From: Xylanimonas cellulosilytica DSM 15894
GTDB taxonomy: Bacteria > Actinomycetota > Actinomycetes > Actinomycetales > Cellulomonadaceae
Direction: 5' to 3'
Assembly (NCBI RefSeq): GCF_000024965.1
Contig: NC_013530.1
Coordinates: 2,356,001 to 2,420,000 of the forward strand
DNA: 64,000 nucleotides
Shown here: positions 9,433 through 57,797 of the stretch, one piece after another
Layout of the letters: each line of letters starts with the position of its first letter
How positions within the stretch are numbered: the stretch's first letter is position 1
Position numbers and translations under genes: made by a program
The notes under the pieces: generated by a model
Told to the model about the DNA's origin: nothing
Seen by the model: the letters and a program-made list of their open reading frames with translations, nothing else
Database searches by the model: none

Positions 9433-10779
9433 TCAGTCGGTGAGCGCCCGCACCACCGCGTCCGCCAGCAGGCGGCCGCGCAACGTCAGCAGCGCGCGGC
9501 GCTGGGTCCCGTCGGAGCCCAGCGCCGCGCGCCCGTCCAGCAGCCCCTGGCCCACCAGGGTGCCGACGGCGCGGCGGGCCGACGGCGTCAGCGCATCGAG
9601 CGGCAGCCCTTCGCGCAGGCGGATCTGGAGCATCACCCGCTCGAGCTGACCGTCGTCGTGCGTGAGCAGCTCGCGGGCCGCGGCCGGCGTGGTGCCCGCC
9701 TCCAGCAGCGCGGCGTAGCGACGCGGGTGCTTGACGTTCCACCAGCGCACGCCCGCGGGGGGTGCGGGGGTGGTTTCGACAGGCTCAACCACCGGGGGCG
9801 GCTCAACCACCGGGGAGTCGGCCGGGGGGGCGGCGATGTAGGAGTGGGCGCCCGGGCCGATGCCCCACCAGTCGTCGCCGCGCCAGTAGGCGAGGTTGTG
9901 ACGGCACTCGTGGCCCAGCCTGGACCAGTTGCTCACCTCGTACCACCCGAGCCCGGCCTCGGTGAGCAGGGCGTCCGCGAGCTCGTACTTGGTGGCCTGG
10001 TCGTCCTCGTCGGGCGTGGGCAGCAGGCCGCGGCGCACCTGGGCGCCCATCTTGGTGCCCGGCTCCACCACCAGCGCGTACGCGGACACATGGTCGACGC
10101 CCGTGGCGATCGCGGTCTCCAGCGACGTCCGCCAGTCGTCGAGGCTCTCCCCCGGCGTGCCGTAGATCAGGTCGAGGCTCACGTCCAGGCCGGCGTCGCG
10201 CGCCCACCGGACGACGTCGGGGATGCGCCGCGGGTCGTGCGTGCGCTCCAGGGTGGCCAGCACCGACGGCACCGCGGACTGCATGCCGAAGCTCACGCGG
10301 GTGAACCCGCCGGCGCGCAGCTCGGCCAGTGACTCGGGCGTCACGGAGTCCGGGTTTGCCTCGGTGGTCACCTCGGCGTCCTTCGCGAGACCCCACGCGT
10401 CACGGACGCCCGCGAGGATCCGCACCAGATGCGACGCCGGGAGCATCGTGGGCGTGCCGCCGCCGAAGAACACGGTCGAGACCGGGCGCTGCCGGATCCC
10501 GGAGGTGCCCAGGACCTTCGCAGCGAGCGCGACCTCGCGCAGCGCCGTCGTCGCGTAGGAGTGCTGCGACGCGCCGCCGCCCAGCTCGGACGCGGTGTAC
10601 GTGTTGAAGTCGCAGTAGCCGCAGCGCACCGAGCAGAACGGGACGTGCACGTAGACGCCGAAGCGGCCGCGGGCGGAGGTGGTTTCGACAGGCTCGACCA
10701 CCGGAGGGGTGCGGTCGGCGACCCATTCCGGCAGCGCTCCGTCGTCGGGCACCGGGACGCCCTCGGGGAGCTGCGGCAC
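9433..10779 (-). CDS. hemW: Radical SAM heme chaperone HemW (coproporphyrinogen oxidase-like)
   Basis: The 448-residue radical-SAM protein binds heme and a 4Fe-4S cluster through C-x3-C-x2-C (CSVRCGYC, residues 49-56). It also has the FFGGGTPTMLP segment and a C-terminal HemW domain. It starts at GTG 10779, 4 nt after the lepA stop, with GGAGAAG upstream, so the two are translationally coupled. Two copies of a dispersed palindromic repeat are translated within it: VVEPVETT at residues 27-34, and [15 protein letters not shown] at about 324-338 in a variable loop. Homologues normally lack these inserts, so they look like later additions. Confidence 0.92.
   Translation of the reverse strand: MPQLPEGVPVPDDGALPEWVADRTPPVVEPVETTSARGRFGVYVHVPFCSVRCGYCDFNTYTASELGGGASQHSYATTALREVALAAKVLGTSGIRQRPVSTVFFGGGTPTMLPASHLVRILAGVRDAWGLAKDAEVTTEANPDSVTPESLAELRAGGFTRVSFGMQSAVPSVLATLERTHDPRRIPDVVRWARDAGLDVSLDLIYGTPGESLDDWRTSLETAIATGVDHVSAYALVVEPGTKMGAQVRRGLLPTPDEDDQATKYELADALLTEAGLGWYEVSNWSRLGHECRHNLAYWRGDDWWGIGPGAHSYIAAPPADSPVVEPPPVVEPVETTPAPPAGVRWWNVKHPRRYAALLEAGTTPAAARELLTHDDGQLERVMLQIRLREGLPLDALTPSARRAVGTLVGQGLLDGRAALGSDGTQRRALLTLRGRLLADAVVRALTD
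9769..9811 (-). repeat. Palindromic VVEPVETT repeat inside hemW (one full copy plus a half copy)
   Basis: A full copy at 9769-9793 (GGTGGTT, 11 nt, AACCACC) is followed by a half copy, GCTCAACCACC, at 9801-9811. On the minus strand both are read in the hemW frame, giving VVEPP and VVEPVETT. Confidence 0.9.
10678..10702 (-). repeat. Palindromic VVEPVETT repeat inside hemW, N-terminal copy
   Basis: GGTGGTT, 11 nt, GACCACC on the plus strand. It is translated on the minus strand as VVEPVETT just before the HemW radical-SAM domain. One arm differs from the consensus by a single base. Confidence 0.9.
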
Positions 10780-10782
10780 GCG

Positions 10783-12642
<1,860 letters not shown>

Positions 12643-12820
12643 CGCGTACTCGCTTCTGGTGCGTCTGGGTGGGGCGGGCCCGTCGATTCTTTCACGCGCC
12701 GCCGCCGGCGCGGGCAGCGGGGCCGAAGTCACCCGCGCTTCTGGTCACGACGACGCCGTACTGCCCTCCCTATTGCTCGGCGCCCGCGATCGGCGCGGGA
12801 GCACGAGGAACGGGAGCACC

Positions 12821-13960
12821 ATGCGCACCAGGACACTCCGGGCTGCGACAGCGGTTGCAGCAGCGATCCTCCTGACCGTCACGACCGGCGTTGCGGCGTC
12901 GGCGCACGACGGCGGCAGGCACGGCCACGACAAGGCCGGCAAGGTCACCACCATCGCCCGTGGGCTCGACAACCCACGCGGCCTGTACGTCACCCCTGAC
13001 GGCACCGTCTATGTCGCCGAGGCCGGGCGGGGCGGCGCGGGCCCCTGCTTCCCGTCCCCGGAAGGCGGCACCGCCTGCCTGGGGAACAGCGGGGCCATCA
13101 CCCGCATCAGCCACGGCAAGCAGACCCGCGTGGTCAAGGGCCTGCCGTCGATCGGTGCCGAGAACACCGGCGAGTCCGCGATCGGGCCGTCCGACGTCGT
13201 CGTCGCACAGGGGCGCGTGACGTTCACGGTGGGCCTGGGGGCCGACCCCGCGGCGGCGGCGGGCCTGCCCGCGCCGGCGAGCGGGCGCGTGGCCTCCCTG
13301 CTCACCGACACGCGGCGCGGACCGTCGCGCATCGCCGACCTCGGCGCGTACGAGGCCGCGGTCGACCCCGACCAGGACGGCCCGGACACGAACCCGAACT
13401 CGCTGGTCGCGAAGGGCAAGGGGTACGTCGTCGTCGACGCCGGGGGCAACTCGCTCCTGTCCGTCGACAAGCGCGGGGTCGTCTCGACCCTGGCGACGTT
13501 CCCGCACCGCCTCGTCGACGCCCCGCCGGAGCTCGGCCTGCCCCCGGGCACCCAGCTGCCGATGGACGCCGTCCCGACGTCCGTGACGCGGGGACCCGAC
13601 GGCGCCTACTACGTCGGCCAGCTCACCGGGTTCCCGTTCCCGCTCGGCGGGGCGAACGTCTACCGGGTCGTCCCGGGCAAGAAGCCCACGGTCTACGCGT
13701 CGGGCTTCACGAACATCATCGACGTGGGCTTCGGTCCCGACGGGCGTCTCTACGTGCTGGAGATCGCCCACAACGGGTTGCTCTCGGGCGACACCACCGG
13801 CGCACTCTGGCGGGTCAAGGGGAAGGGCTCGGCCGTGCAGGTCAAGACCCCGACCCTGACGGCGCCCGGAGGCCTCGCGTTCGACAAGAAGGCCGCGTAC
13901 GTCTCGACCGGCAGCGTCGTCGCCGGACTGGGCAGCGTGGTGCGTATCCCGCTCCGGTGA
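12821..13960 (+). CDS. Secreted ScyD/ScyE family protein
   Basis: A 379-residue exported protein with a Sec signal peptide (MRTRTLRAATAVAAAILLTV, cleavage probably after the Ala-Ser-Ala near residue 28). A six-bladed beta-propeller-like domain follows with NHL-type repeats (GLDNPRGLYVTPDGTVYVAE, GPDGAYYVGQ, FGPDGRLYVLE). It matches the ScyD/ScyE family, named from cyanobacterial scytonemin clusters but widespread; the enzymatic role is unclear. ATG 12821 follows GGGAG. A 13-bp GC-rich hairpin lies just after the stop. Confidence 0.85.
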   Translation: MRTRTLRAATAVAAAILLTVTTGVAASAHDGGRHGHDKAGKVTTIARGLDNPRGLYVTPDGTVYVAEAGRGGAGPCFPSPEGGTACLGNSGAITRISHGKQTRVVKGLPSIGAENTGESAIGPSDVVVAQGRVTFTVGLGADPAAAAGLPAPASGRVASLLTDTRRGPSRIADLGAYEAAVDPDQDGPDTNPNSLVAKGKGYVVVDAGGNSLLSVDKRGVVSTLATFPHRLVDAPPELGLPPGTQLPMDAVPTSVTRGPDGAYYVGQLTGFPFPLGGANVYRVVPGKKPTVYASGFTNIIDVGFGPDGRLYVLEIAHNGLLSGDTTGALWRVKGKGSAVQVKTPTLTAPGGLAFDKKAAYVSTGSVVAGLGSVVRIPLR

Positions 13961-13978
13961 TCCGCCGGGCTCCGCACC

Positions 13979-14027
13979 GTGGCCCGGCTCCGCCGAGGAG
14001 CCGGGCCACGCCGAGGAGCCGGGCCAC
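13979..14027 (+). terminator. GC-rich hairpin downstream of the ScyD-like gene, right arm duplicated
   Basis: A 13-bp perfect stem, GTGGCCCGGCTCC (13979-13991) with GGAGCCGGGCCAC (13997-14009), and a 5-nt loop. The right half recurs immediately (14010-14027), so two alternative stems are possible. There is no T-tract, so it is an actinobacterial L-shaped terminator candidate. Confidence 0.65.
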
Positions 14028-14047
14028 GCCCCGGCCGGCGTCGCCGC

Positions 14048-14053
14048 TAGCGT
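14048..14053 (+). promoter_or_regulatory. -10 hexamer TAGCGT, leaderless start at 14060
   Basis: TAGCGT lies 6 nt before ATG 14060; no ribosome binding site is visible. Confidence 0.5.
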
Positions 14054-14059
14054 TCCCCC

Positions 14060-14812
14060 ATGACGCCCGCCGCGTACCTCGCCCAGCTCGCCCGCCTGCA
14101 GTCCGCGTTCGCGGCGATGGCCGCCGGAACCGACCCTGGCGCCGTCGTGCCGGGGCTGGGTGACTGGCAGGTCCGGGAGCTCGTGGCACACCTCGCCGGG
14201 GTGCACCGCTGGGCGGGCGGGATGGCCGAGGGTGACCCCGCACGGGACGATGAGCCCGACGTCGCCGGCCTCGACGCGGCAGCGCTCTCGGCGGTCTACG
14301 CGGAGCACGCCGCCGGGCTCCTGGCCGTCCTGGAGCGGCTCGGTCCCGACGCCGCGGCCATCACGCTCACCGGGCCGGGACCGGCGTCGTTCTGGTTCCG
14401 CCGCCAGGTGCACGAGACGCTCGTGCACCTCGGGGACCTGGCCGCGGCTCGCACCGGCGCGTGGACGCCCGACGTGCTCGACGGCGTCGTCGCCCTCGAC
14501 GACGGGCTGTGGGCCGACGGCGTCGACGAGATCGTGACCATGTTCGAGCCGCGGCAGGTGCGGCTGCAGCGGATCGCGCCCCTCGAACACCTCGTCGCGC
14601 TGCAGGACCCGGCCGGCGGGGCGTCCTGGGTGCTCGGCGCCCACGAGGACGGCCGCTCCCCGGCCGACTCCCCCGTGGCCACCGTCACCGGCGATGCCCG
14701 GAGCCTCGACCTCGTCCTGTGGGGCCGGGTCGCGCCGGACGCCGCCGGCATCGTCATCGACGGGGACGCTGCCGCGGTGGAGGCCGCGCTCGGAGCCGGG
14801 ATCACTCCCTGA
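14060..14812 (+). CDS. Maleylpyruvate isomerase-like / DinB-fold protein (TIGR03083 type)
   Basis: A 250-residue protein with an N-terminal DinB-like four-helix bundle (WQVRELVAHLAGVHRWA) and the second metal-ligand helix (RRQVHETLVHLGD). Histidines in these helices are the expected zinc ligands. A C-terminal SCP2/MDMPI-like domain covers residues about 150-250. The family includes mycothiol-dependent maleylpyruvate isomerase and many uncharacterised mycothiol-linked transferases, so the substrate cannot be named. It converges on the transglutaminase gene with a 39-bp gap. Confidence 0.8.
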   Translation: MTPAAYLAQLARLQSAFAAMAAGTDPGAVVPGLGDWQVRELVAHLAGVHRWAGGMAEGDPARDDEPDVAGLDAAALSAVYAEHAAGLLAVLERLGPDAAAITLTGPGPASFWFRRQVHETLVHLGDLAAARTGAWTPDVLDGVVALDDGLWADGVDEIVTMFEPRQVRLQRIAPLEHLVALQDPAGGASWVLGAHEDGRSPADSPVATVTGDARSLDLVLWGRVAPDAAGIVIDGDAAAVEAALGAGITP

Positions 14813-14851
14813 GCCCCCGGCCCTCCACCAGCGGGAGGCCCGGCGACAGGC

Positions 14852-18224: not shown

Positions 18225-18230
18225 GTGCGC

Positions 18231-18236
18231 AACGTA
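18231..18236 (-). promoter_or_regulatory. -10 hexamer TACGTT, leaderless start of the ATP-grasp gene
   Basis: On the minus strand TACGTT is followed by 6 nt (GCGCAC) and ATG 18224. This supports the shorter start. Confidence 0.5.
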
Positions 18237-18318
18237 GGAGGAGGCCATGGCGCATGCATTGCCGGATTGTTTCCGATACGTGACAGCAGTGGCTCAACAG
18301 GCTCTCCGGCGTCGGCCG

Positions 18319-18324
18319 TAGGCT
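18319..18324 (+). promoter_or_regulatory. -10 hexamer TAGGCT, leaderless start at 18332
   Basis: TAGGCT is followed by 7 nt and GTG 18332, without a Shine-Dalgarno sequence. Confidence 0.5.
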
Positions 18325-18331
18325 GTGCGCC

Positions 18332-19334: not shown

Positions 19335-19373
19335 GCTGACGACCGCCGGGTCCGTAGGACCTGAGTAGACGTC

Positions 19374-19409: not shown

Positions 19410-19474
19410 CGCCGTTCCCACGGCGTCCCCGGGTGCGGCTCAGGTGCGACCCAGTGGGGCGACCGCGGGGCGAC

Positions 19475-30236: not shown

Positions 30237-30317
30237 GCGGCGCGGCTGAGCGGCGCGGGCGCGGTTCAGCGGCGCGGCCCGGGGTCGGCTCAGCGGCGCG
30301 GCCCGGGGTCGGCTCAG
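30226..30317. repeat. Tandem repeats spanning the convergent 3' ends of sdhB and degV
   Basis: GGCGCGGCTGAGC occurs twice in tandem (30226-30238, 30239-30251). A 24-bp unit beginning GGCGCGGCCCGGGG and ending TCGGCTCAGC occurs nearly twice (30271-30294, 30295-30317). The units include the stop codons of sdhB (plus) and degV (minus); the 24-bp unit gives degV a second in-frame stop. Confidence 0.85.
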
Positions 30318-31234
30318 TGCGCGTGCGCGCCGAGCTCCGCGACCACCACGGCGAGCGCCCCCGGCCCCGCGTGGGTGCCCAGCACCGCGCTGACGGGCGT
30401 GACCACCGGGACCACGCCGAGCGTCTCGGCGAGCCGCCCCGCGGCGGCCTCGGCCCGCTCGGCCGCACCGAGGTGGTGCACTGCGACCCCCGGACGTTCC
30501 ATCCCGGCGGCGTGCTCCGCCGCGATGGCGAGCATCCGGTCGAGGGCCGCGGCGCGGGTCCGCACGCGCTGCACCAGGCTCACCCGGCCGTCCACGATCT
30601 CCAGGATCGGACGCACGCCGAGCGCCGCACCCAGCGCGGCCGCACCCGCCGACAGCCGCCCGCCGCGCCGCAGATGGTCGAGGGAGTCGACCAGGAACAG
30701 GCAGCGGCTCGACGCCGCGACCTCACGGGCCCGCGCCGCGACGTGCTCCGCGTCCGCGCCGTGGGCCGGGCACTCCGCCGCCGCGAGCGCCGCGAACCCC
30801 AGCGCCATCGCCGCGGTACGCGAGTCGACGACCCGCACCGGCACCATCGCCCGCTGCCCCGCATGGGCCGCCGCGCCGACCGTGCCCGACACGTCGCCCG
30901 ACAGGTGGACCGAGACGATCGCGCCCGCCCCGTCGGCGGCCAGGTCGCGGTACACGTCCGCGAAGTCCTCCGGCGCGGGCTGCGAGGTGGTCAGCCGCTG
31001 CCCGGCCGCGATCCGCTCCGCGACCTCGGCCGGGGTGATGTCGACGCCCTCGCGGCGGTCGCCGTCGGGGGTCAGCACGCGCAGGGGCACGACGACGACG
31101 GGGCTCGCGTCGTCGTCCACGGCGTCGGGCAGGCAGGCCGTGGAGTCCGTGACGACGCGCACCTCGGATCGGGCCGCGGCACGGGGGGCGGCGTCGTCGG
31201 GCAGGGCGGAGGGCTTCGTCAGGTGCAGGCGCAT
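30314..31234 (-). CDS. DegV family fatty-acid-binding protein
   Basis: A 306-residue protein with the DegV layout: N-terminal [32 protein letters not shown] (lipid-head contact region), [15 protein letters not shown], and the hallmark [17 protein letters not shown]. DegV/FakB proteins hold a fatty acid for phosphorylation by the kinase FakA; no fakA is visible here. TAGGGT lies 9 nt before the start, consistent with a very short leader. Confidence 0.9.
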
Positions 31235-31300
31235 GGCACGGTCACCCTACCGACCGGGGTGCGCCGCAGCCGTGCCGGTGCGCCCCGCGAGCGCGGGCGC

Positions 31301-31306
31301 TACGTT
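31301..31306 (+). promoter_or_regulatory. -10 hexamer TACGTT, leaderless start of the HerA-like gene
   Basis: TACGTT is followed by 6 nt and ATG 31313; no ribosome binding site is present. Confidence 0.5.
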
Positions 31307-31312
31307 GCGGCC

Positions 31313-33334
31313 ATGGCCTCGACCCCACCCACGTCCGCCGAGCTCGCCGCCCTCCGCGCCGCCGCGGCCCAGGCCGCAGCCGAGGCAGCGGAGGCCAGGG
31401 CGGCGGCCGCGCAGGCCGCCCTCGCCGCCGCGGAGGCCGCGGCCGCCCCGGCCGTTGAGCCCATCGACACCACGAGCCCGGTGGTTGAGCCCGTCGAAAC
31501 CACGAGCCCGGTGGTTGAGCCCGTCGAAACCACGAGCCCGGTGGTTGAGCCTGTCGAAACCACGAGCCCGGTGGTTGAGCCTGTCGAAACCACCCAAGAC
31601 TCCGAGGGCGGGGTGGTTTCGACAGGCTCAACCACCGGGGCCGACGGTGGGGTGGTTTCGACAGGCTCAACCACCGAGGGCTCAACCACCGGGGACGGGT
31701 ATGCCGCCGAGGTGGCCGCCGCCTATGCCTCGCGCGGTGGCACGCTGCCGCTCGGCGCCCTGCTGGAGGGCGAGCCGGGCTCCGACCCGGCTCCGAACCC
31801 GGCCGCGCAGGTCGGCTTCGCGCTGCGCATGCTCAACCGGCACGGTCTGGTCGCGGGCGCGACGGGCACCGGCAAGACCAAGACGCTGCAGGGCATGGCC
31901 GAGGGCCTGTCCCTCGCGGGCGTCCCGGTGTTCGTCGCCGACATCAAGGGCGACCTGTCGGGCCTGGCGGTCCCGGGCGCCACGAACGACGCCATCGTCG
32001 AGCGCGCCGCGGGCATCGGTCAGGACTGGACGCCCACCGCGTACCCGGTCGAGTTCTACTCCCTGGGCGGCCTCGGCAAGGGCGTCCCGATCCGCACCAC
32101 GGTCACCGACTTCGGCCCGCTGCTGCTGTCCAAGGTGCTGGGCCTCAACGCGACGCAGGAGTCGAGCCTCGGCCTCGTCTTCCACTGGGCCGACACGCAA
32201 GGGCTCGCGCTGCTCGACCTCAAGGACCTCCAGGCCACCATCGCGTACCTGGTCTCCGACGAGGGCAAGGACGACCTCAAGGGCATCGGCGGGCTGTCTG
32301 CGGCCACGGCCGGCGTGATCCTGCGCGAGATCGTGGGGCTCCAGGCCCAGGGCGCCGACGTGTTCTTCGGCGAGCCCGCGTTCGCGACGTCGGACCTGCT
32401 GCGCGTCGCGCCCGACGGGCGCGGCGTCATCTCGGCGCTCGAGCTGCCCGCGGTCCAGGACCGGCCCGCGCTGTTCTCGACGTTCCTCATGTGGCTGCTG
32501 GCCGACCTGTTCCAGGAGCTGCCCGAGGTCGGCGACCCGGACAAGCCGAGGCTCGTCTTCTTCTTCGACGAGGCGCACCTGCTGTTCACGGGCGCGAGCA
32601 AGGACTTCCTCACACAGGTCACCCAGACGGTCCGCCTGATCCGCAGCAAGGGCGTCGGCATCTTCTTCGTCACGCAGTCCCCCAAGGACGTGCCCGCTGA
32701 CGTGCTCGCCCAGCTCGGCAACCGGGTCCAGCACGCGCTGCGCGCCTTCACGCCCGACGACGCGACGGCGCTGCGGCAGGCCGTGCGCACGTTCCCGCAC
32801 TCCCCGTACGACCTCGAACGGCTGCTGCAGTCGCTCGGCACCGGCGAGGCGGTGGTCACGGTGCTGACCGAGAAGGGCGCGCCGACGCCGGTCGCGTGGA
32901 CGCGGGTGCGTGCCCCGCAGGCGTCCATGGATCCCGCTCCCGAGGCGGTGCTCGACGCCGTCGTCGCGGCCTCGCCGGGGCAGGCACGCTACGGCACCGC
33001 CGTCGACAACGAGTCCGCGTTCGAGCTGCTGCAGGTGCGTGTGCAGCAGGAGGCCGCTGCCCGTGAGGCCGCCGACGCCGCCGAGGCCGCCGCGAAGGCA
33101 CAGGCCAAGGCCGACGCCGAGGCGGCCAAGGAGCGGGAACGGGCCGCCAAGAAGGAGCAGGCCGAGCTGGAGAAGATGCGCGCGCGGCTCGAGCGCGACG
33201 CCGCCAAGCAGCGCGCGGGGACGACGTCGCGGCCCCGCAGCACGGCGAGCCCGCTCGACGCGATCCTCAAGACGGCAGGCAGCACGCTGGCCCGCGAGAT
33301 CACCCGCTCGATCTTCGGCACCCGCCGCCGCTGA
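31313..33334 (+). CDS. HerA-like ATPase (DUF853 family) with repeat-derived linker
   Basis: A 673-residue P-loop ATPase. It opens with an alanine-rich coiled coil (about residues 9-47). A repeat-encoded linker follows at about 48-128, then the HerA/VirB4-like core: Walker A GATGTGKT at about 182-189, IKGDLSGLA, Walker [11 protein letters not shown] at about 414-423, and [24 protein letters not shown] charged coiled coil (about 578-636) and a short C-terminal helix end it. Family members are predicted DNA translocases or helicases; the substrate is unknown. The linker is built of [10 protein letters not shown] units and V-V-S-T-G-S-T-T units from a dispersed palindromic repeat. Confidence 0.88.
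31454..31694 (+). repeat. In-frame array of the palindromic repeat in the HerA-like gene
   Basis: Five tandem 30-bp units begin at 31454, 31484, 31514, 31544 and 31574, each starting GTTGAGCC; the last is cut short by unique sequence. Two inverted full copies follow at 31612-31636 and 31652-31676, then a half copy at about 31679-31694. All are translated in one frame with no stop. Unit 1 is diverged (P-I-D-T-T); units 2-3 carry CCCGTC and units 4-5 CCTGTC, a stepwise duplication pattern. Confidence 0.95.
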
Positions 33335-34699: not shown

Positions 34700-34803
34700 G
34701 GTGGTCGAGCCTGTCGAGACCACCCTGGCCGATGATGGCCAGGGTGGTTTCGACAGGCTCAACCACCGGGTCGGGCGGGGTGGTTTCGACAGGGTCGACC
34801 ACC
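34700..34803. repeat. Three palindromic repeat copies between convergent genes
   Basis: Copies at 34700-34724, 34743-34767 and 34779-34803. The first two are inverted relative to each other around CTGGCC-GATGAT-GGCCAG, making one 68-bp nested palindrome. They occupy most of the 149-bp gap between the Eis-like gene and glgP and could act as a bidirectional terminator. Confidence 0.9.
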
Positions 34804-48389: not shown

Positions 48390-48448
48390 AGTGCTCCCCT
48401 GCGTGGTCGAAACGATTCGGCCACAGCCTACGCCTGGTCGGGAGGTGC

Positions 48449-49171: not shown

Positions 49172-49178
49172 TGGCGCG

Positions 49179-49184
49179 AGCCTA
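49179..49184 (-). promoter_or_regulatory. -10 hexamer TAGGCT, leaderless start of the DtxR-family gene
   Basis: On the minus strand TAGGCT is followed by 7 nt (CGCGCCA) and GTG 49171. It overlaps the stop codon of the metallophosphoesterase gene. Confidence 0.5.
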
Positions 49185-51281
49185 CGGCTGCGACGCGTCG
49201 GCCGCGTCATCGGCGGGCTGGTCACCGTCCGCGGGATGGTCACCATCCGCGGCCGGCTCGTCATCGGACGGCTGCGCGTCGTCGCCGGACCCTGCGTCGC
49301 CAGACTCTGCGTCGCCGGACTCTGCGTCGCCGGACTCTGCGTCGCCGGACTCTGCGTCACTGGACTCTGCGTCGCCGGACGGCTGCTCGTCACCGGGGGT
49401 CGGCTGCTCGTCGCCGGTCTGGTCGTCGCGGTCCCCGTCACCTTCCCCGTCCTCGACCTCGACGGGCTCGGGCGCCGCCGGCATCTCCTGCCACGGGCTG
49501 ACCTGGGCGGTCGCGTCGGGGAACACCTCGACGAGCTTCCAGTCCACGAACCGGCGTGCGACCGGGTCGAAGCGCAGCAGCGTCATCTCGGCCGTGCCGT
49601 GCAACGGTCCGACGGTCGGCTGCCCGGAGGCGGCCCCCGCCGTCGAGCCGTTGACGTAGCGCAGCCCGAGGCCGAACGCGAAGGGGTCGTGGCGCCGGTG
49701 CGTGTGCCCCGAGACCTGGAACGGCACGCAGCCGGACTCCAGCGCCGCGTTCCCCACGGCCGGCGTGTGGATCAGCAGCAGGTCGACGTCGTCCTCGCAC
49801 GCCGTCGCGGCCAGCCGCTCGCCCACCTCCTCGAGCGTCTCCTCGCGTACCGAGGTCCCGCCGCCCACGCGCGTCTCGTGCGGGTCGCGGTCGCCGAGGA
49901 TGCGCACGCCGTCGACCTCGACCACCGACCCCTCGAGCACGGTGATGCCCTGGCCGCGCTGTGCGTCGGCGATCACCTGCGAGTCGTGGTTGCCGTCGGC
50001 GGCGATCATCTCGACGCCCTGGGGGCGGGCCGAGGCGAAGGAGTTGACGCACACGCGCTCGACGGCGGTGCCGTTCATCGTCGTGTCGCCCGCATCGAGG
50101 ATGGCCGCGGCGCCGGCGTTCGCGGCCACGTCGCGGATGAGCGGGGTCATGCTCATGTTGCAGTGCAGGTCGGAGACGACGAGGAGGGTCACGAGGTCCT
50201 CCTCCGGCGTCGGCGACGGTGTGCTCACCTCCGCGGAGGGCTCGCCGGACGGGCTGACGTCCGGCGTCGGGGTGCCCGAGGCCGCCGGTGCGGACGGCGA
50301 TGCCGACGCCGCGGGATCAGGCGTGGCCGGATCAGGTGTGGCGGCATCAGGCGTGGCCGGATCAGGCGTGGCCGGATCAGGCGTGGCGGCATCCGGCGTC
50401 GCCGCGTCCGGTGTGGCCACATCCGCAGTGGCCGCGTCCGATGTCGCGGCGTCGGACGGCTGCGCCGTCGTGCCCGTCAGCGTCGTCAGCGACCGTTCGC
50501 GCATCCGGGCGAGCGCCACGTCGACCCTGGCCTGCCGGTCCCACGCCTCCTGGAGCGAGGTGCGCGCATCGGCGTAGAACTCCTCGTTGGAGCGGTAGAT
50601 CCCCAGGAGCTGGGCACCGTAGGTGTCGATCACGCCGGCCAGGCGTCCGGTGATCCGCGCCCCCTCGAAGGCCGTCCCGGCGAACACGGGCGACGTCGGC
50701 GTGTTCGACGGCGTCTCACGGTCGTCGGCGACGAGGGTGCCGGCCAGCAGCGCGAGGACGGCCACGCCCGCGGCGACCTCCCAGGTGCGGGGTGCCACGC
50801 GGGCGGCCAGCTCGCGGCGGCGCACCGCGCCGACCAGGAACCAGAGCCCGGCGCCCGCGACGGCGAGCACCACGAGCGCGACGGCGGTGCGTCGCACGGC
50901 GTCGACGACGAGCGCGCTCGTCACCTCGCGGATCGTCACGTCGGGGCTCGCGAAGAACTGGAGGTAGGACTGGAGGTCGACGCTCAGGTCCTCGAGCGTG
51001 GTGGACCGGTCGATCTGGGCGAGGTCGGCAGGGATCTCCCGGATCGTGACGTCGACGCCGAGCGGCCCCGCCGGCGAGTCCACGCGCAGGGTGCCGAGCG
51101 GCCCGAGGTCGGCGGCGACCTCCCCCGACGTGGTGATCTCGTAGCGCGCCTCGTGCGGCCCCAGGGACAGGTCGGCCGAGGCCGTCAGCACCCCGAAGCC
51201 GAGGCTCGCGACGAGTGCCAGGACGCCCACCAGGGTCCAGCGGACCCAGGCGGGTGGCGTGCGCCGTGCTGCGTTGACCAC
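49182..51281 (-). CDS. Membrane-anchored metallophosphoesterase with two low-complexity repeat tracts
   Basis: A 699-residue protein. It has an N-terminal membrane helix (WVRWTLVGVLALVASLGFGV), a soluble segment, a second pair of helices (about residues 130-180), a Thr/Pro/Ala linker, and a calcineurin-like phosphoesterase domain: LLVVSDLHCNM, LDAGDTT, ADGNHDS and VSGHTHRRHDP. The tail is acidic. Two tandem 15-bp arrays encode A-T-P-D-[AP] repeats before the enzyme domain and D-A-E-S-G repeats at the C-terminus. GTG 51281 follows GGTAGGAGC. The catalytic domain is probably extracellular. Confidence 0.88.
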   Translation of the reverse strand: MVNAARRTPPAWVRWTLVGVLALVASLGFGVLTASADLSLGPHEARYEITTSGEVAADLGPLGTLRVDSPAGPLGVDVTIREIPADLAQIDRSTTLEDLSVDLQSYLQFFASPDVTIREVTSALVVDAVRRTAVALVVLAVAGAGLWFLVGAVRRRELAARVAPRTWEVAAGVAVLALLAGTLVADDRETPSNTPTSPVFAGTAFEGARITGRLAGVIDTYGAQLLGIYRSNEEFYADARTSLQEAWDRQARVDVALARMRERSLTTLTGTTAQPSDAATSDAATADVATPDAATPDAATPDPATPDPATPDAATPDPATPDPAASASPSAPAASGTPTPDVSPSGEPSAEVSTPSPTPEEDLVTLLVVSDLHCNMSMTPLIRDVAANAGAAAILDAGDTTMNGTAVERVCVNSFASARPQGVEMIAADGNHDSQVIADAQRGQGITVLEGSVVEVDGVRILGDRDPHETRVGGGTSVREETLEEVGERLAATACEDDVDLLLIHTPAVGNAALESGCVPFQVSGHTHRRHDPFAFGLGLRYVNGSTAGAASGQPTVGPLHGTAEMTLLRFDPVARRFVDWKLVEVFPDATAQVSPWQEMPAAPEPVEVEDGEGDGDRDDQTGDEQPTPGDEQPSGDAESSDAESGDAESGDAESGDAESGDAGSGDDAQPSDDEPAADGDHPADGDQPADDAADASQP
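49290..49385 (-). repeat. 15-bp tandem array encoding D-A-E-S-G repeats
   Basis: Repeats of CGGACTCTGCGTCGC with few changes (five to six units) encode the acidic C-terminal tail of the metallophosphoesterase. Confidence 0.85.
50315..50450 (-). repeat. 15-bp tandem array encoding A-T-P-D-A/P repeats
   Basis: About nine units related to GCATCAGGCGTGGCC encode a Thr/Pro linker before the phosphoesterase domain. The more distal units are diverged. Confidence 0.85.
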
Positions 51282-51364
51282 GCTCCTACCCTTCCCGACG
51301 ACGTGCGGCGACGCCACCGTCGGCCACCAGCCGGCCTCGCGCCGACGTCGTACCTGGCGTCAGG

Positions 51365-52724: not shown

Positions 52725-52774
52725 CCGCCCATCGTCGCGCGGCAGGCGGGCGGCCGCCAGGGAACCGCGGCGGC

Positions 52775-53740
52775 CTACCCCGAGCTGCAGGAGAGTGCGG
52801 GAGTGCCATGCTCGCCGGGTGTCGCGGTCTGGCGCAGCTCGTGCTCCAGGTCTTCCTCGACCAGGAAGAGGTTGACGGCACCGCCGACGGCGGACCCGTC
52901 TCCCATGCTCATCGGCACGTTCGCGTACGGCGCGGCGGCGTTGCCCACCGCCCAGATCCGGTCGTGGCTGGTTCGTCCGTCGCTGCCGAGCTCGAGGAAC
53001 CCGGTGCCGAGTCGCGCGAGCGACTGCGGCAGATAGGTGTCGCGGGGAGCAAGGACGGAGCCGGTGAAGATGGCGTCGACGGTGGTGACCGAGCCGTCGG
53101 CGCAGCAGACATCGACGGCCCCGTCGGGGCGCGGAGCCAGTGCGGTGACCGGTGCGGTGCTGACCCGGGTGCCCAGTGCGCGCATCCGCATCAGGGTGGC
53201 GTCGTCGGTGGTGCCGGCGTCGGCGACGAACGCGGTGAGGTGGGTGCTCCACTGCCGCAGGAGCTGTGCCTGGAACAGACCCATCGCCGGGGTGGCGATC
53301 ACGGCGAGGCGCTTCCCGCGCACTTCCCATCCGTGGCAGTAGGGGCAGTGGAGCACTCGCCTCCCCCACAGGTCGGCGAGCCCGTCGATCGGTGCCAGCT
53401 CGTCGGCGGCACCCGTGGCATTGATGAGCGTCCTGCCGCGATGCAGCCCGGTCTCGGTGCGAACGACGACCTCGTCGGACGACGCGTCGGCCTCGGTCGC
53501 GTGACCGGGTGCGAAGGTCACGTCGTACTGGTTCAGCTCGAGACGCGCGCGGCGGCGCAGCTCCTCCGGAGGCGCCCCGTCGAAGCCGAGGACGGCGTGC
53601 ATGTGGTGGGCGAACCGGTTGCGCGGGAGGTCGTCGTCGAGCACGAGGACGCGTCGCCGTGCCCGTCCGAGCATCATCGCCGCGCTCAACCCGCCGGGGC
53701 CTGCGCCGACGACGATGGTGTCGAAGTGTTCCTGAGTCAT
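52775..53740 (-). CDS. Thioredoxin-reductase-like FAD disulfide oxidoreductase
   Basis: A 321-residue flavoprotein with FAD motif VVGAGPGGLSAAMMLGRARRRVLVLDD, redox pair C-P-Y-C in HCPYCHGWEVRG, and the C-terminal FAD loop DRIWAVGNAA. The second dinucleotide motif, normally GxGxxA/G, reads RLAVIATPAMGLFQ and lacks the glycines. That is more like O2-using dithiol oxidases (GliT/HlmI-type) than NADPH thioredoxin reductases. It lies 70 nt downstream of the cupin regulator. Confidence 0.85.
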   Translation of the reverse strand: MTQEHFDTIVVGAGPGGLSAAMMLGRARRRVLVLDDDLPRNRFAHHMHAVLGFDGAPPEELRRRARLELNQYDVTFAPGHATEADASSDEVVVRTETGLHRGRTLINATGAADELAPIDGLADLWGRRVLHCPYCHGWEVRGKRLAVIATPAMGLFQAQLLRQWSTHLTAFVADAGTTDDATLMRMRALGTRVSTAPVTALAPRPDGAVDVCCADGSVTTVDAIFTGSVLAPRDTYLPQSLARLGTGFLELGSDGRTSHDRIWAVGNAAAPYANVPMSMGDGSAVGGAVNLFLVEEDLEHELRQTATPGEHGTPALSCSSG

Positions 53741-53810
53741 GCGCCCACCCTGGGGCGCCCGGATCCGCCCGCACCACCTTCTTCCCAGATCTGCAAAGCG
53801 AGCGGGCGCG

Positions 53811-54383
53811 CTAGATCTCGGCGAGGTGCATCCGGCCGCCGTGCTTGCCGTAGATGGCGATGATCTCCGCCGGCTCGGTGGCGTGCGCGTTGCCGATCCA
53901 GTGCGGGGTCTTCGTGTCGAACTCCGCCGCTTCCCCTGCGACGAGGTGGGTGCCCTGCCCGGAGAGCACGAGGCGAACTTCGCCGTGGAGGACGTAGAGC
54001 CACTCACGGCCGGCGTGCGAGTGATACCTCGGGCTGGCCATCCGGGACTCCGGCGGATAGATCACCTTGTATGCCTGCAGCTGGCCCCGGTTGATGCCCA
54101 ACGGCACGAACGTGAGGCCGTCGCGGCGGATCGGACGCAGGTGCACCCGGGGATCGCCGTGCGCGGGCGCGGCGACGAGCTCGTCGAGGGGCACCCCGTA
54201 GACGCGGGCGAGCGGCAGGAGCTGCTCGAGGGTGGGGCGGATCTGGGAGCGTTCCAGCCGCGAGATCGTGCTCGACGTCAGCCCGGTCTGCTCGGCGAGG
54301 TCGGACAGCGTGAGACGCAGCGCCTGCCGGAATGCCCGCAACCGCGGTCCCACGTTGTCGAGCACGTCGTCGTCTCCGGCCAT
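53811..54383 (-). CDS. XRE-family transcriptional regulator with C-terminal cupin domain
   Basis: A 190-residue regulator with an HTH_3 domain (LRAFRQALRLTLSDLAEQTGLTSSTISRLERSQIRPTLEQLLPLARVYGVPLDEL) and a cupin sensor domain (YHSHAGREWLYVLHGEVRLVLSGQGTHLVAGEAAEFDTKTPHWIGN) with His residues suited to metal or ligand binding. ATG 54383 follows GAGGAAGG. Regulators of this kind usually control the adjacent gene, here the flavoprotein. The inducer is unknown. Confidence 0.9.
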   Translation of the reverse strand: MAGDDDVLDNVGPRLRAFRQALRLTLSDLAEQTGLTSSTISRLERSQIRPTLEQLLPLARVYGVPLDELVAAPAHGDPRVHLRPIRRDGLTFVPLGINRGQLQAYKVIYPPESRMASPRYHSHAGREWLYVLHGEVRLVLSGQGTHLVAGEAAEFDTKTPHWIGNAHATEPAEIIAIYGKHGGRMHLAEI

Positions 54384-54398
54384 GACCTTCCTCTCGGC

Positions 54399-55181
54399 TC
54401 AGCCCTGGTCGGACACGTCGACGGTACGGATGAACGCCGCGAGCATCTCCTCCGGGCCCATCGCGTCGAGCCCGTCCAGGGGATCGGCGTCGCCGGCGAT
54501 GGTGCGCACCTCCTCGTGGATCCGCTCCATGGAGGTGTCGAGGGACCAGGCGACGTCGGCGGCGAGCTTGAGCGAGTCGCTCAGGTGCTTGGGCACCGTC
54601 TGACCCAGCTTGTAGAAGATCTTGTGCTCGAGGCTGGCCCAGAAGTCCATGGCGATGGTGCGCAGCTGGATCTCGACCAGCACGTCCTCGACCCGGTCCG
54701 ACAGGTACACGGGGATGCGCACGATCAGGTGCAGCGACTTGTACCCGCTGGGCTTGGGGTGGGCGATGTAGTCGCGCTCCTCGACGAGGGTGACGTCCCC
54801 CTGGCCGATGATCATGTCCCGCACCCGGTAGATGTCCGAGACGAAGCTGCACGTCACCCGCACCCCCGCGATGTCGAACATCTCGCCGCGGATGCCCTGC
54901 ATCGTCAGCGGGATGTCCTTGCGGCGCGCCTTGGCGAGGATCGACTCGAACGTCTTGAGCCGCGATCCGACGTGCTCGATCGGGTTGTAGTCGTGGATCT
55001 GCCGGAACTCCTCGCGCAGGATCGAGATCTTCGTCATGACCTCGTCGATCCCGAACTTGTAGCTCAGCAGCATGCGCCGCAGGTCGTGCATGAGGCGGCG
55101 CACCTGCGCCGCGTTCGGCAGCGAGCCCGACGCGGTCAGCGCGGCCACCGTGGGTGCCTGCGGGGCGTGGGAATCCGTCAC
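54399..55181 (-). CDS. Small alarmone synthetase (RelA/SpoT synthetase domain only)
   Basis: A 260-residue protein with a RelA/SpoT-type synthetase domain and neither a hydrolase nor TGS/ACT domains. Motifs are DIAGVRVTCSFVSDIYRV, RDYIAHPKPSGYKSLHLIVRIP and the catalytic VEIQLRTIAMDFWASLEHKIFYK. It would make (p)ppGpp from ATP and GDP/GTP, as YjbM/YwaC do. GTG 55181 is favoured by TACCGT 6 nt upstream; ATG 55214 would add 11 residues. It is divergent from ligD by 39 bp. Confidence 0.9.
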   Translation of the reverse strand: MTDSHAPQAPTVAALTASGSLPNAAQVRRLMHDLRRMLLSYKFGIDEVMTKISILREEFRQIHDYNPIEHVGSRLKTFESILAKARRKDIPLTMQGIRGEMFDIAGVRVTCSFVSDIYRVRDMIIGQGDVTLVEERDYIAHPKPSGYKSLHLIVRIPVYLSDRVEDVLVEIQLRTIAMDFWASLEHKIFYKLGQTVPKHLSDSLKLAADVAWSLDTSMERIHEEVRTIAGDADPLDGLDAMGPEEMLAAFIRTVDVSDQG

Positions 55182-55187
55182 AGCCTC

Positions 55188-55193
55188 ACGGTA
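55188..55193 (-). promoter_or_regulatory. -10 hexamer TACCGT, leaderless start of the alarmone synthetase gene
   Basis: On the minus strand TACCGT is followed by 6 nt (GAGGCT) and GTG 55181. Confidence 0.5.
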
Positions 55194-55220
55194 TGCCGGA
55201 TTCCGCGCCACCATGGGGTG

Positions 55221-57797
55221 ATGGGCGCACCGACGACGGTCACCGTGGACGGGCACCGCCTCCAGCTCACGAACCTGGACAAGGTGCTCTATCCGGCCAC
55301 GGGCACCACCAAGGGCGAGGTGATCGACTATCTCGCCCGGATCGCACCCGTCCTGCTCCCCCACGCCCGGCGGCGTCCCGCGACGCGCAAGCGGTGGCCC
55401 GACGGCGTCGAGGGCCAGGTGTTCTTCCAGAAGAACGCCGACCGCTCCACGCCGTCGTGGGTGCGCACGCACCGCATCCAGCACAAGACGTCGGCCAACG
55501 ACTACGTGCTGGTCGACGACGTCGCCACGCTCACCTGGCTGGGGCAGACGGCGTCGCTCGAGCTGCACGTGCCGCAGTGGCAGGTCGGGCGCACCGGCAC
55601 CCACCTGCCGCCGGACCGGCTGGTGCTCGACCTGGACCCCGGCGAGGGCGCGGGCCTGCCCGAGTGCGCGGAGGTCGCGCGGCTGGCCCGGGCGATCCTC
55701 CAGGGGATGGGGCTGGAGCCGCTGCCGGTGACCTCCGGGTCGAAGGGCATCCACCTGTACGCCGCACTGTCCGCCGGGTCCTCCCCCGAGGGGGCGAAGC
55801 CGTCCTCCGCGGAGCAGATCACCGACGTCGCGCACGAGCTCGCCCGGTACCTGGAGGCCGAGCACCCCGACCTGGTGGTCAGCGACATGAAGAAGTCGCT
55901 GCGCGGCGGCAAGGTGCTCGTGGACTGGTCGCAGAACAACGGGGCGAAGACGACGATCGCGCCCTACTCGCTGCGCGGGCGCACCCGTCCCACGGTCGCG
56001 GCACCGCGCACCTGGGCGGAGCTCGACGACCCGGACCTGCGGCAGCTCTCGTACGAGGAGGTGCTGGACCGGGTGGCCCGCGACGGCGACCTGCTGGCCG
56101 GGCTGACGGCGGGTCACCTGTCCCAGCTCGAGCCGACCCCGGCGCACCTGGCCCGGTTCGAGCGCCTGGCCACCTACAACGCCAAGCGGGACCCCGCCAG
56201 GACCCCGGAACCCTTCGACACCGCCCCACCCGCTCCGGTGGTTGAGCCTGTCGAAACCACGCCACCGGTGGGAGGGGTTTCGACAGGCTCAACCACCGGG
56301 GTGGGCTCAACCATCGGGGTGGGCTCGACCACCGGGGTGGGCGCGCCCACCTTCGTGATCCAGGAGCACCACGCCCGCCGCCTGCACTGGGACTTCCGCC
56401 TCGAGCGCGACGGGGTGCTGGTGAGCTGGGCGCTGCCCAAGGGCGAGCCGACCGACCCCGGCACGAACCACCTGGCCGTGCAGACCGAGGACCACCCGCT
56501 CGCGTACGGCGGCTTCGAGGGCACCATCCCGAACGGCGAGTACGGGGCGGGCGAGGTGACCATCTGGGACTCCGGCACGTACGAGACCGAGAAGTGGCGC
56601 GACGGCAAGGAGGTCATCGCCGTCCTGCACAGCGAGCGCCGCGGCACCCGCCGCCTCGCACTGATCCGCACGGGCCGCGCGGAGGGCGACAACCAGTGGC
56701 TGATCCACCGCACGAAGGCCCAGCCCGCCGAGGACGTGGCTTCGCCGGCCCCGGTGGTTGAGCCTGTCGAAACCACCACCCCGACCCGCTCGACCGCCGA
56801 GGTCGCGGTCCGGCTCGAACCCATGCTCGCCTCCGCCGCCCAGCCGGCCGAGGTCCGCGCCCTGGAGGCCGACGGGGAGTCGGGCAGCCACGACTGGGTG
56901 TTCGAGATGAAGTGGGACGGCTACCGCACCCTCGCCGTCGTCGAACCCGGCCCCGACGGCACGCGCGCCATCCGTCTCACCTCCCGCACGGGACAGGACT
57001 TCACGCGCACCTACCCGGAGCTGGCGCCGCTCGCCGCGCAGGTCACCGGCGAGCTGCCGGTGGTCCTGGACGCCGAGATCGTCGCCCTCGACGCCGCAGG
57101 CCGCCCCGACTTCCGCCGGCTGCAGCAGCACGCGGGCAACGTCGAGCTCATGGTCTTCGACGTGCTCCAGGTGGGCGACCGGTCCCTGCTGCACACCCCG
57201 TACGACGAGCGCCGAACCGTGCTGGCCGACGTCCTCGACGCACGACGTCCGGTCCACCTGCCCGCCGCGTTCGACGGCGACCTGACCGCCGCGCTGGAGA
57301 CCTCGCGACGCCTGCGCCTCGAGGGCGTCATGGCCAAGCGCCGTGAGTCGACCTACCAGCCGGGCCGCCGGACGCGGCAGTGGCTCAAGCTCAAGCACAC
57401 CGCCGTCCAGGAGGTGGTCGTCGTCGGGTGGCGTCCGCTGCGCGCGGGAGAAACCGACGAGGACCCGCGGTATGCGGGCGGCCTGCTGCTCGCCGTACCC
57501 GCCGACGACGGCGCCCTGCGCTACGTGGGCCGCGTCGGGACGGGGTTCAGCGACGCCGAACGCCGCGACGTCGCCACCCGCCTCGCCGCCGTCGAACGCA
57601 AGACGCCGCCGCTCGACGGCGTCCCCCGGCCCGACGCCGCTCACACCCGCTGGGTCACCCCGCGGCTGGTCGGCGAGGTGGAGTTCGCGGAATGGACCGG
57701 CGACCCGACCGACGACCCCGAGGCCCGGTTGCGCGCCGCCCGCTGGCGCGGCTGGCGCCCGGACAAGGAGCCCGCCGACGTCGTCGTCGAACCCTGA
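55221..57797 (+). CDS. ligD: Multifunctional ATP-dependent DNA ligase LigD (polymerase-phosphoesterase-ligase)
   Basis: An 858-residue NHEJ enzyme in the mycobacterial order. The POL domain covers residues about 1-330, with catalytic LDLDPGEG at about 136-143. The PE 3'-phosphoesterase domain covers about 375-505 (HHARRLHWDFRLE, NGEYGAGEV). The LIG domain covers about 535-858, with catalytic Lys564 in MKWDGYR. Both inter-domain linkers are made of the dispersed palindromic repeat: residues 340-374 (V-V-E-P-V-E-T-T, then V-S-T-G-S-T-T-G and G-V-G-S-T-T units) and 512-519. It works with Ku at 51900. ATG 55221 is chosen; GTG 55218 is equally possible. Confidence 0.95.
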   Translation: MGAPTTVTVDGHRLQLTNLDKVLYPATGTTKGEVIDYLARIAPVLLPHARRRPATRKRWPDGVEGQVFFQKNADRSTPSWVRTHRIQHKTSANDYVLVDDVATLTWLGQTASLELHVPQWQVGRTGTHLPPDRLVLDLDPGEGAGLPECAEVARLARAILQGMGLEPLPVTSGSKGIHLYAALSAGSSPEGAKPSSAEQITDVAHELARYLEAEHPDLVVSDMKKSLRGGKVLVDWSQNNGAKTTIAPYSLRGRTRPTVAAPRTWAELDDPDLRQLSYEEVLDRVARDGDLLAGLTAGHLSQLEPTPAHLARFERLATYNAKRDPARTPEPFDTAPPAPVVEPVETTPPVGGVSTGSTTGVGSTIGVGSTTGVGAPTFVIQEHHARRLHWDFRLERDGVLVSWALPKGEPTDPGTNHLAVQTEDHPLAYGGFEGTIPNGEYGAGEVTIWDSGTYETEKWRDGKEVIAVLHSERRGTRRLALIRTGRAEGDNQWLIHRTKAQPAEDVASPAPVVEPVETTTPTRSTAEVAVRLEPMLASAAQPAEVRALEADGESGSHDWVFEMKWDGYRTLAVVEPGPDGTRAIRLTSRTGQDFTRTYPELAPLAAQVTGELPVVLDAEIVALDAAGRPDFRRLQQHAGNVELMVFDVLQVGDRSLLHTPYDERRTVLADVLDARRPVHLPAAFDGDLTAALETSRRLRLEGVMAKRRESTYQPGRRTRQWLKLKHTAVQEVVVVGWRPLRAGETDEDPRYAGGLLLAVPADDGALRYVGRVGTGFSDAERRDVATRLAAVERKTPPLDGVPRPDAAHTRWVTPRLVGEVEFAEWTGDPTDDPEARLRAARWRGWRPDKEPADVVVEP
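56237..56342 (+). repeat. Palindromic repeats in the LigD POL-PE linker
   Basis: A full copy at 56237-56260, an inverted copy at 56274-56297, then two 18-bp half-copy units (GGGGTGGGCTCAACCATC type) to about 56342. All are in frame with ligD. Confidence 0.9.
56753..56777 (+). repeat. Palindromic repeat in the LigD PE-LIG linker
   Basis: One full copy, translated V-V-E-P-V-E-T-T at residues 512-519, at the boundary between the phosphoesterase and ligase domains. Confidence 0.9.

What the first reader, a model, noticed from the sequence alone, without database searches (positions are those of the whole stretch)
9769..56777. A dispersed palindromic repeat is translated as protein linkers in three unrelated genes
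A 25-bp element (arms GGTGGTT/AACCACC, 11-nt centre) occurs in full about 13-15 times in six clusters: two in hemW, one array in the HerA-like ATPase, one between genes and two in ligD. Five of its six reading frames are open. Every coding copy uses only two of them, giving V-V-E-P-V-E-T-T or V-V-S-T-G-S-T-T. The more hydrophobic frames (W-L-S-L-S-K-P, G-F-D-R-L-N-H, W-F-R-Q-A-Q-P) are not used. Coding copies fall at domain boundaries or termini. This resembles in concept the Rickettsia palindromic elements that insert in frame into proteins, and similar short repeats are recalled from other actinobacterial genomes. A mobile element that builds disordered linkers would be notable.
Basis: partly seen in the sequence, partly recalled or inferred. 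Interest (0 to 1): 0.85.

Follow-up and report, generated by a model that had tools for sequence, protein, structure and literature searches.

The report
Scattered DNA hairpins read as linkers
A short hairpin-forming DNA repeat has spread to hundreds of places in the chromosome of a soil bacterium, mostly between genes but also inside unrelated genes, where it is read as an apparently tolerated stretch of protein.

Summary
The window belongs to Xylanimonas cellulosilytica. The 25-nt hairpin element occurs 14 times in the window; its exact core occurs 505 times in the genome, against 2 to 151 in ten other genomes of the genus. In an 864-kb sample, 102 of 155 copies are intergenic, favouring convergent gaps, and 49 are coding. 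Of the coding copies 46 are read VVEPVETT or VVSTGSTT and 3 GGFDRLNH, one clearly inside a helicase gene; so 'only two frames' holds in the window, not genome-wide. The spreading unit looks like an inverted dimer: dimer spacers at unlinked loci, coding and intergenic, are related. Sister species have both empty and filled sites. This is a REPIN-like palindromic repeat, but without the defining Y1 transposase (0 of 11 genomes). The same core with changing, complementary arms recurs in viral contigs of 32-72% G+C, which suggests a wide, unnamed hairpin family. In-frame REPs are already in print. The new parts are the core family, the missing transposase and a LigD linker that received unrelated palindromes in different species. 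The mobiliser is unknown.

The parts
9769..9793 (+). element in hemW (gene on -), read PVVEPVETT, variable loop before the C-terminal part
   Evidence: element-free in G298, G301, G296, G304, G302; decayed copy in G297, opposite orientation in G305
10678..10702 (+). element in hemW, read PVVEPVETT at aa 25-33, before the radical SAM domain
   Evidence: not in the 6 genus orthologues whose N-terminus was aligned (a 7th, G302, lacks that end)
9433..10779 (-). HemW (448 aa) carrying two element sites
   Evidence: Pfam PF04055 at 43-221; NCBIfam TIGR00539 over its cut-off
31450..31474 (-). decayed copy, read AVEPIDTT
31480..31504 (-). array copy 1 in the HerA-like gene, PVVEPVETT
31510..31534 (-). 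array copy 2, PVVEPVETT
31540..31564 (-). array copy 3, PVVEPVETT
31570..31594 (-). left half of an inverted dimer, PVVEPVETT
31595..31611 (.). 17-nt dimer spacer, related to the intergenic spacer at L050:3972, which is related to a coding one at L479:1626
31612..31636 (+). right half of the inverted dimer, GVVSTGSTT
31651..31675 (+). further copy, GVVSTGSTT
31304..33334 (+). HerA-like ATPase, probable true extent; the array lies between an N-terminal Ala-rich stretch and the ATPase domain
   Evidence: Pfam PF05872; NCBIfam HerA models match below their cut-offs; orthologue starts
34700..34724 (-). intergenic copy in a convergent gap, compensatory stem change (GGTGGTC/GACCACC)
34743..34767 (+). 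intergenic copy, dimer partner
34779..34803 (+). intergenic copy
   Evidence: the orthologous gap of G298 is about 75 bp and has no element
55221..57797 (+). LigD (polymerase, phosphoesterase and ligase domains), 858 aa
56237..56261 (-). ligD copy, PVVEPVETT, between polymerase (to aa 291) and phosphoesterase (from aa 381)
56273..56297 (+). ligD copy, dimer partner, GGVSTGSTT, followed by half-copies
56753..56777 (-). ligD copy, PVVEPVETT, between phosphoesterase (to aa 472) and ligase (from aa 534)
   Evidence: the same place holds an unrelated palindrome in G298, G305 and G296

Best explanation
It is a REPIN-like short palindromic repeat of the Xylanimonas chromosome. The monomer is a 25-27 nt hairpin (7-bp stem, 11-nt loop TCGACAGGCTC, 3' GG). 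The unit that spreads is most likely an inverted dimer of about 61-67 bp, with the GGTGGT ends facing each other, which folds into one long hairpin. [Shown] Copies are dispersed, differ in number between sister species, sit at some sites that are empty in sisters, and share spacers between unlinked loci. [Inferred] New copies arise when the single-stranded dimer is copied into a new site by an enzyme not identified here; local slippage then makes tandem arrays and half-copies. Selection removes copies from most promoters and from folded protein cores. What remains lies mainly after genes and in tolerant linkers, in the phase where both halves of the dimer read as Thr/Ser/Gly/Pro/Glu-rich peptide. 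The dimer's geometry helps: in 19 of 29 facing pairs the halves start 36, 39 or 42 nt apart, so one phase meets a TGA, one reads aromatic (WLSLSKP/WFRQAQP) and one reads VV..TT.
For: 505 exact cores, reversed control 0, against 2-151 in 10 other genus genomes. 155 elements in 864 kb (reversed consensus 0 in the first 464 kb): 102 intergenic, 49 coding, 4 partial, although 90% of the sequence is coding; gaps holding an element: convergent 18 of 87, codirectional 12 of 246, divergent 2 of 121. Frames: 26 VVEPVETT, 20 VVSTGSTT, 3 GGFDRLNH; no WFRQAQP or WLSLSKP. Neighbour spacing is a multiple of 3 in 26 of 28 coding pairs but 21 of 68 intergenic pairs. Pairs: 29 with GGTGGT ends facing, 7 the other way round; spacers of different stretches are related, mean best score 7.40 against 3.84 (sd 0.30) shuffled. 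Empty sites: HemW, LigD, HerA, HrpA. Stem: 9 of 11 double changes keep the pair.
Against: No mobiliser found: Y1_Tnp absent in 11 of 11 genus genomes, and no other transposase family was searched genome-wide. No insertion was resolved to the base and no target duplication seen, since sister linkers have diverged. Several sites are shared with G305 or G301, so many insertions are old. The 88.6-kb plasmid has 0 copies where chromosomal density predicts about 16 copies or 5 clusters, against frequent recent movement. Single changes in the stem (124, 17 of them G-T) far outnumber compensatory ones (9).
Confidence: 0.75

Rival explanations
1. A functional chromosomal site (3'-end RNA hairpin or terminator, gyrase or nucleoid-protein site) kept by selection and multiplied by recombination rather than transposition; coding copies are tolerated by-products. 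Not exclusive of the best explanation as to function.
For: Preference for convergent gaps (18 of 87 against 2 of 121 divergent); very stable dimer hairpin (-54 kcal/mol as RNA, z -11.2); several core positions invariant among the sampled copies, which were picked by likeness to the consensus.
Against: Six other genus genomes have only 2-12 cores (three of them are under 95% complete), so no needed role; no T-run terminator in the window gap; avoidance of divergent gaps is also expected from selection against promoter damage.
Confidence: 0.3
2. Ordinary low-complexity linkers with convergent codons, not an element.
For: The same linkers vary in length and composition in relatives without the element.
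Against: The same DNA occurs in intergenic gaps and in both orientations in genes; dimer spacers are shared between coding and intergenic loci; residues absent in distant HemW orthologues.
Confidence: 0.02
3. A DNA-uptake-type signal accumulated by biased transformation.
For: Short fixed core, hundreds of copies, inverted pairs after genes; in concept like uptake sequences (recalled, not tested).
Against: Copy number is 2-12 in six other genus genomes; variable arms on a fixed core in viral contigs; competence genes were not examined.
Confidence: 0.07
4. A RAYT-mobilised REPIN population whose transposase was lost from the whole genus, now decaying.
For: REPIN-like dimers; Y1_Tnp genes exist in distant relatives G191, G266 and G112, which hold 11, 5 and 4 cores; 0 of 7 copies perfect in the G297 loci read.
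Against: 72 of 158 copies are perfect in X. cellulosilytica; G008 and G288, with 34 and 39 cores, lack Y1_Tnp too; no core seen in the 8 Y1 loci fetched of 13 matches, about 1.5 kb each side (two of these loci hold withheld stretches); no GTAG at the foot (0 of 146).
Confidence: 0.2

Closest known systems
REPINs / RAYT-associated REPs (GTAG REPs)
   Same: short palindromes, inverted dimers with spacers, many copies; REPs mostly between unidirectional or convergent genes (PMC3116915 passages; PMC3733652 sections read)
   Different: no Y1_Tnp gene in the genus, no GTAG tag, 11-nt loop
CGTC REPs (Di Nocera 2013)
   Same: no dedicated transposase known, inverted dimers common, some intragenic (PMC3733652)
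   Different: CGTC stems are 8-9 bp with 4-5 nt loops and a CGTC tag; here 7 bp, 11 nt and no such tag
Rickettsia palindromic elements (RPE)
   Same: in-frame insertion into unrelated genes, tolerated peptide (as described in PMC3733652)
   Different: different host; their sequences were not compared here
BIMEs of enterobacteria
   Same: mosaics of alternating palindromic units between genes
   Different: sequence and associated transposase differ (recalled)

Membership tests
REP sequences (five-part definition in PMC12306157, passage) | mostly extragenic | tested here: met
   102 of 155 intergenic, 49 coding, 4 partial; transcription not tested
REP sequences (five-part definition in PMC12306157, passage) | palindromic, short, similar, many copies | tested here: met
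   25 nt; 505 exact cores; hairpin
REPIN | inverted doublets with spacer forming one hairpin | tested here: met
   29 facing pairs, 26 with spacers of 9-20 nt; spacers related; long hairpin
REPIN | RAYT (Y1_Tnp) gene in the genome, flanked by the repeat | tested here: not met
   0 of 11 genus genomes (4 of them under 80% complete); the same search rings in 5 of 14 control genomes
GTAG REP superfamily | GTAG (or GTGG) tetranucleotide at the foot of the hairpin | tested here: not met
   last four bases before the stem: GTAG 0 of 146, GTGG 24 of 146; on the other strand, within 6 nt, 0 and 0
CGTC REP superfamily | CGTC (TGTC, CCTC) tag; stem 8-9 bp; loop 4-5 nt | tested here: not met
   tag 0 of 146 on one side and 10 of 146 on the other, all CCTC; 7-bp stem, 11-nt loop
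Rickettsia palindromic elements | in-frame insertion with empty sites in orthologues | tested here: met
   HemW, LigD, HerA, HrpA
Rickettsia palindromic elements | sequence of an RPE family | not tested
   no RPE sequence was fetched
IS-derived MITE | target-site duplication and a parent IS with the same ends | tested here: inconclusive
   boundaries could not be resolved to the base; no parent IS was looked for genome-wide

The most novel reading that the evidence does not exclude
TTCGACARGCTCA with any complementary arms is one wide family of hairpin repeats, spread over unrelated bacteria and their viruses (stretches of 32-74% G+C), defined by a fixed loop and a free stem. It multiplies as an inverted dimer without a Y1 transposase, through loop recognition by an enzyme not yet linked to repeats.
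Probability: 0.3. Interest if true: 0.82.

Novelty: new variant of a known kind. Interest (0 to 1): 0.58.

Why it matters
It gives a clean case, in a complete genome with ten more genomes of the same genus (2 to 151 cores each), for asking how short palindromes multiply without a RAYT, a question left open for CGTC REPs in 2013 (PMC3733652). The coding copies form a natural insertion experiment: they mark protein loops that tolerate from about 10 to about 50 added residues. One LigD linker has received unrelated palindromes in different species.

Tried and rejected
RAYT as mobiliser: not found in this genus. A local profile from eight Y1 open frames found none in 126 viral stretches with the hairpin, none in 122 without, none in the G000 sample; on its own eight source loci it gave 10 hits. 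Viral contigs are a poor place to look, so this is weak. Rfam: no family match in the window. Terminator scan of the gap: none. Replication-arm bias: copies look sparse at 1.3-2.0 Mb, but other stretches are empty too and G+C skew was too weak to place the terminus. Low-copy genomes as a guide to a mobiliser: of 5 cores in G296 and 4 in G298, about 2 each have the element's arms; their neighbour genes were not analysed. Base-level insertion sites: not resolved. G303 could not be used for frames because the codon model fails at its lower G+C. HemW hits in G299, G300 and G303 were fragments or weak and were left out of the orthologue comparison. Literature: ten searches; core sequences gave no hit as text, but sequences printed in figures cannot be found this way. 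Seven papers were opened: PMC3733652 (abstract, sections 6, 14, 15, passages); PMC3035249, PMC12306157, PMC8049555, PMC6006769, PMC3116915 and PMC3377646 (passages only). The papers PMC8049555, PMC6006769 and PMC3377646 added nothing used above.

Full report
WHERE IT IS. The window lies at 2,356,001-2,420,000 of contig 1 of a genome of 3,831,380 bases in 2 contigs; contig lengths are 3,742,776 and 88,604. The published X. cellulosilytica XIL07 genome has 3,831,380 bp with an 88,604-bp plasmid (PMC3035249, passages), so I take the host to be that species.

THE OBSERVATION. One search finds 14 copies with at most 2 mismatches, 0.08 expected. One search assigns 11 of the 14 to genes and 3 to a convergent gap. 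All 11 use VVEPVETT or VVSTGSTT.

GENOME AND RELATIVES. The exact core TTCGACARGCTCA occurs 505 times (255 and 250 by strand; reversed control 0) in the own genome. In ten other genomes of the genus it occurs 5, 27, 4, 51, 6, 12, 2, 151, 2 and 145 times (four of these genomes are less than 80% complete, and not every core in a low-copy genome has the arms). Of 296 genomes of the phylum 135 have at least one match, but only four exceed ten: own 505, G288 39, G008 34, G191 11. Among 80 named HemW loci of relatives, of up to about 13 kb each, 2 (Specibacter, Planctomonas) hold the core or a near form; own and very near genomes may be left out there. The number changes about two-hundredfold inside one genus, so I read this as a lineage-specific amplification.

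WHERE COPIES SIT. I read the window, 39 spaced 20-kb stretches of the chromosome and 20 kb of the plasmid (864 kb) with a simple codon-usage gene caller. There are 155 elements with at most 4 mismatches: 102 intergenic, 49 coding, 4 partial; coding sequence makes up 90.3%. Elements occupy 18 of 87 convergent gaps, 12 of 246 codirectional gaps and 2 of 121 divergent gaps; convergent against divergent P = 4e-6, codirectional against divergent P = 0.16, not significant. The two divergent cases are single good copies in L467 and L471, so exclusion is not complete. The plasmid (88,604 bases) has none.

FRAMES. The 49 coding copies fall into 21 sites in 18 genes. 26 are read VVEPVETT, 20 VVSTGSTT and 3 GGFDRLNH; none WFRQAQP or WLSLSKP. 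Two of the three exceptions lie within 24 residues of a called start and may be outside the gene. The third is inside a UvrD-like helicase (L471) with coding-like codon usage around it. By site, 18 of 21 have all copies in the VV..TT phase; of 17 sites at least 30 residues from the called start, 16. An element-centred set of 75 copies in the first 392 kb (loci fetched because they match, partly overlapping the sample, those overlapping L032 dropped) has 26 coding, all VV..TT; in a 400-kb sample of G305 7 of 8 coding copies, and in five G297 loci 2 of 2. The G305 exception lies 13 residues from a called start. Neighbouring copies are a multiple of 3 apart in 26 of 28 coding cases and 21 of 68 intergenic cases.

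PROTEIN SITES. LigD copies lie between the polymerase (30-291), phosphoesterase (381-472) and ligase (534-725) domains; one HemW copy before the radical SAM domain (43-221); the HerA array before the ATPase. NCBIfam names HemW, LigD and HrpA over the cut-offs; the HerA-like protein matches HerA models only below theirs. Elsewhere: an ABC exporter between membrane and nucleotide-binding domains, a tandem ABC protein between its two ATPases, a GH3 enzyme between its two domains, two E2 acyltransferases (one after the lipoyl domain, one after the catalytic domain). Not every site is a domain border: an HrpA copy interrupts conserved helicase sequence.

EMPTY AND FILLED SITES. HemW: the N-terminal site is absent from the 6 orthologues with that end; the second loop is element-free in G298, G301, G296, G304 and G302, has a decayed PAAEPVDTT in G297 and the opposite orientation (GVSTGST) in G305. 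In the 32 of 80 named HemW proteins that I aligned, that loop is short or filled with other residues. LigD: the first site is also filled in G301 and G305, not in G298; the second holds a copy in G297 and a changed one in G301. HerA: the array is absent in G298, G305, G296 and G297. HrpA: one G000 insert of about 53 residues is missing in G305, while another site is filled in both. Other sites shared by G000 and G305: the DDAH-like C-terminus, the 5' end of a SpoU-methylase gene and a tandem ABC protein. So insertions are of different ages, and some linkers have been filled more than once.

A SECOND PALINDROME IN THE SAME LINKER. At the second LigD site G298, G305 and G296 carry a different palindrome of about 58 nt. 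It is self-complementary at 93% in G298 and 86% in G305 and recurs once elsewhere in the G305 sample. In G298 and G305 it reads through in frame with both neighbours; in G296 the neighbouring domains match in different frames, so frame cannot be judged there.

THE UNIT. Neighbouring copies form 29 pairs with the GGTGGT ends facing, 7 the other way round, and 67 tandem pairs. One such dimer folds into one long hairpin (-33.6 kcal/mol as DNA, z -10.9). For 26 facing pairs with spacers of 9-20 nt, the best match of each spacer to a spacer from another stretch scores 7.40 on average, against 3.84 (sd 0.30, max 4.81) for 200 shuffled sets; not all 26 have a good partner. The HerA spacer at 31595-31611 resembles an intergenic one (L050:3972), which resembles a coding one in an MMPL gene (L479:1626). 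This is the strongest evidence that coding and intergenic copies come from one dispersing dimer. Half-copies (GGCTCAACCACCGG without its left part) number 33 against 96 with it, which suggests local slippage.

A WIDER FAMILY. They give 314 distinct contexts in 216 loci: in 184 the core is flanked by at least 3 complementary pairs, against 17.6 (max 26 of 50 trials) with partners shuffled; the loci with arms span 32-72% G+C, with 34 different 4-bp arms among 86. An earlier count with the loci, whose arms were part of the query, gave 194 of 325. On 110 of 182 non-redundant contexts, drawn without regard to the arms but including 8 loci, the arm pairs have a covariation score of 0.500 against 0.158 (sd 0.018) shuffled, and 0.04-0.21 when slid by 1-3 columns. 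The core is invariant there by construction of the query; its own variation was not measured. One viral contig of 38% G+C carries 23 letters of the window's form exactly. I did not establish hosts.

MECHANISM. Shown: dispersal, dimer unit, empty sites, preference for convergent gaps, phase bias. Inferred: copying of a single-stranded dimer by an unidentified enzyme. Tested and not met: a Y1 (RAYT/IS200) gene, 0 of 11 genus genomes, and none in G008 or G288. Three of the eight genomes (G191, G266, G112) do have Y1 genes, 13 matches in all; the 8 loci fetched show no core within about 1.5 kb. Other transposase families were not searched. The phase bias needs no linker function: in dimers whose halves are a multiple of 3 apart only two phases are open, one aromatic and one hydrophilic, and the hydrophilic one is used.

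WHAT IS KNOWN. Di Nocera et al. 2013 (PMC3733652; abstract, sections 6, 14, 15 and passages read) described REPs inside genes, many of them for replication and repair, suggested that such inserts may be neutral in flexible linkers or loops, reported placement after genes and in convergent gaps, and left CGTC REPs without a transposase. In-frame palindromes are therefore not new. I found no report of this element or core by the ten searches listed; figures and closed journals were not searchable.

Noticed in passing
49265-49384 and 50281-50460: Two runs of 15-nt tandem repeats inside one called gene (49182-51281, - strand), coding five-residue repeats; a separate low-complexity case.
   Followed up: no
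59146-59384 and 59484-59722: A 239-nt stretch repeated at 73% identity in two adjacent small genes, apparently a local gene duplication.
   Followed up: no
L112:3025-3082; LigD linkers in L451, L453, L454: A second, unrelated palindrome of about 58 nt in the genus, at the same LigD place in three genomes and at one further place in G305.
   Followed up: partly
L454 (G296 LigD): The LigD domains of G296 match in different reading frames; sequencing error or a real break was not decided.
   Followed up: no
G000 contig 2 (L480, L501-L504): The 88.6-kb plasmid has no copy of the element although chromosomal density predicts about 16.
   Followed up: yes
G000 1.28-1.97 Mb; G305 0.7-2.3 Mb: Copies look sparse in the middle of both chromosomes; the replication terminus was not located.
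   Followed up: partly
L198:8837-8859: A viral contig of 38% G+C carries the 23-nt inner form of the window's element exactly, just before what looks like a ribosome-binding site and start codon.
   Followed up: no
window 30317-31304: The called HerA frame extends upstream in the same frame; part of it matches DNA of relatives but is probably not HerA protein.
   Followed up: partly
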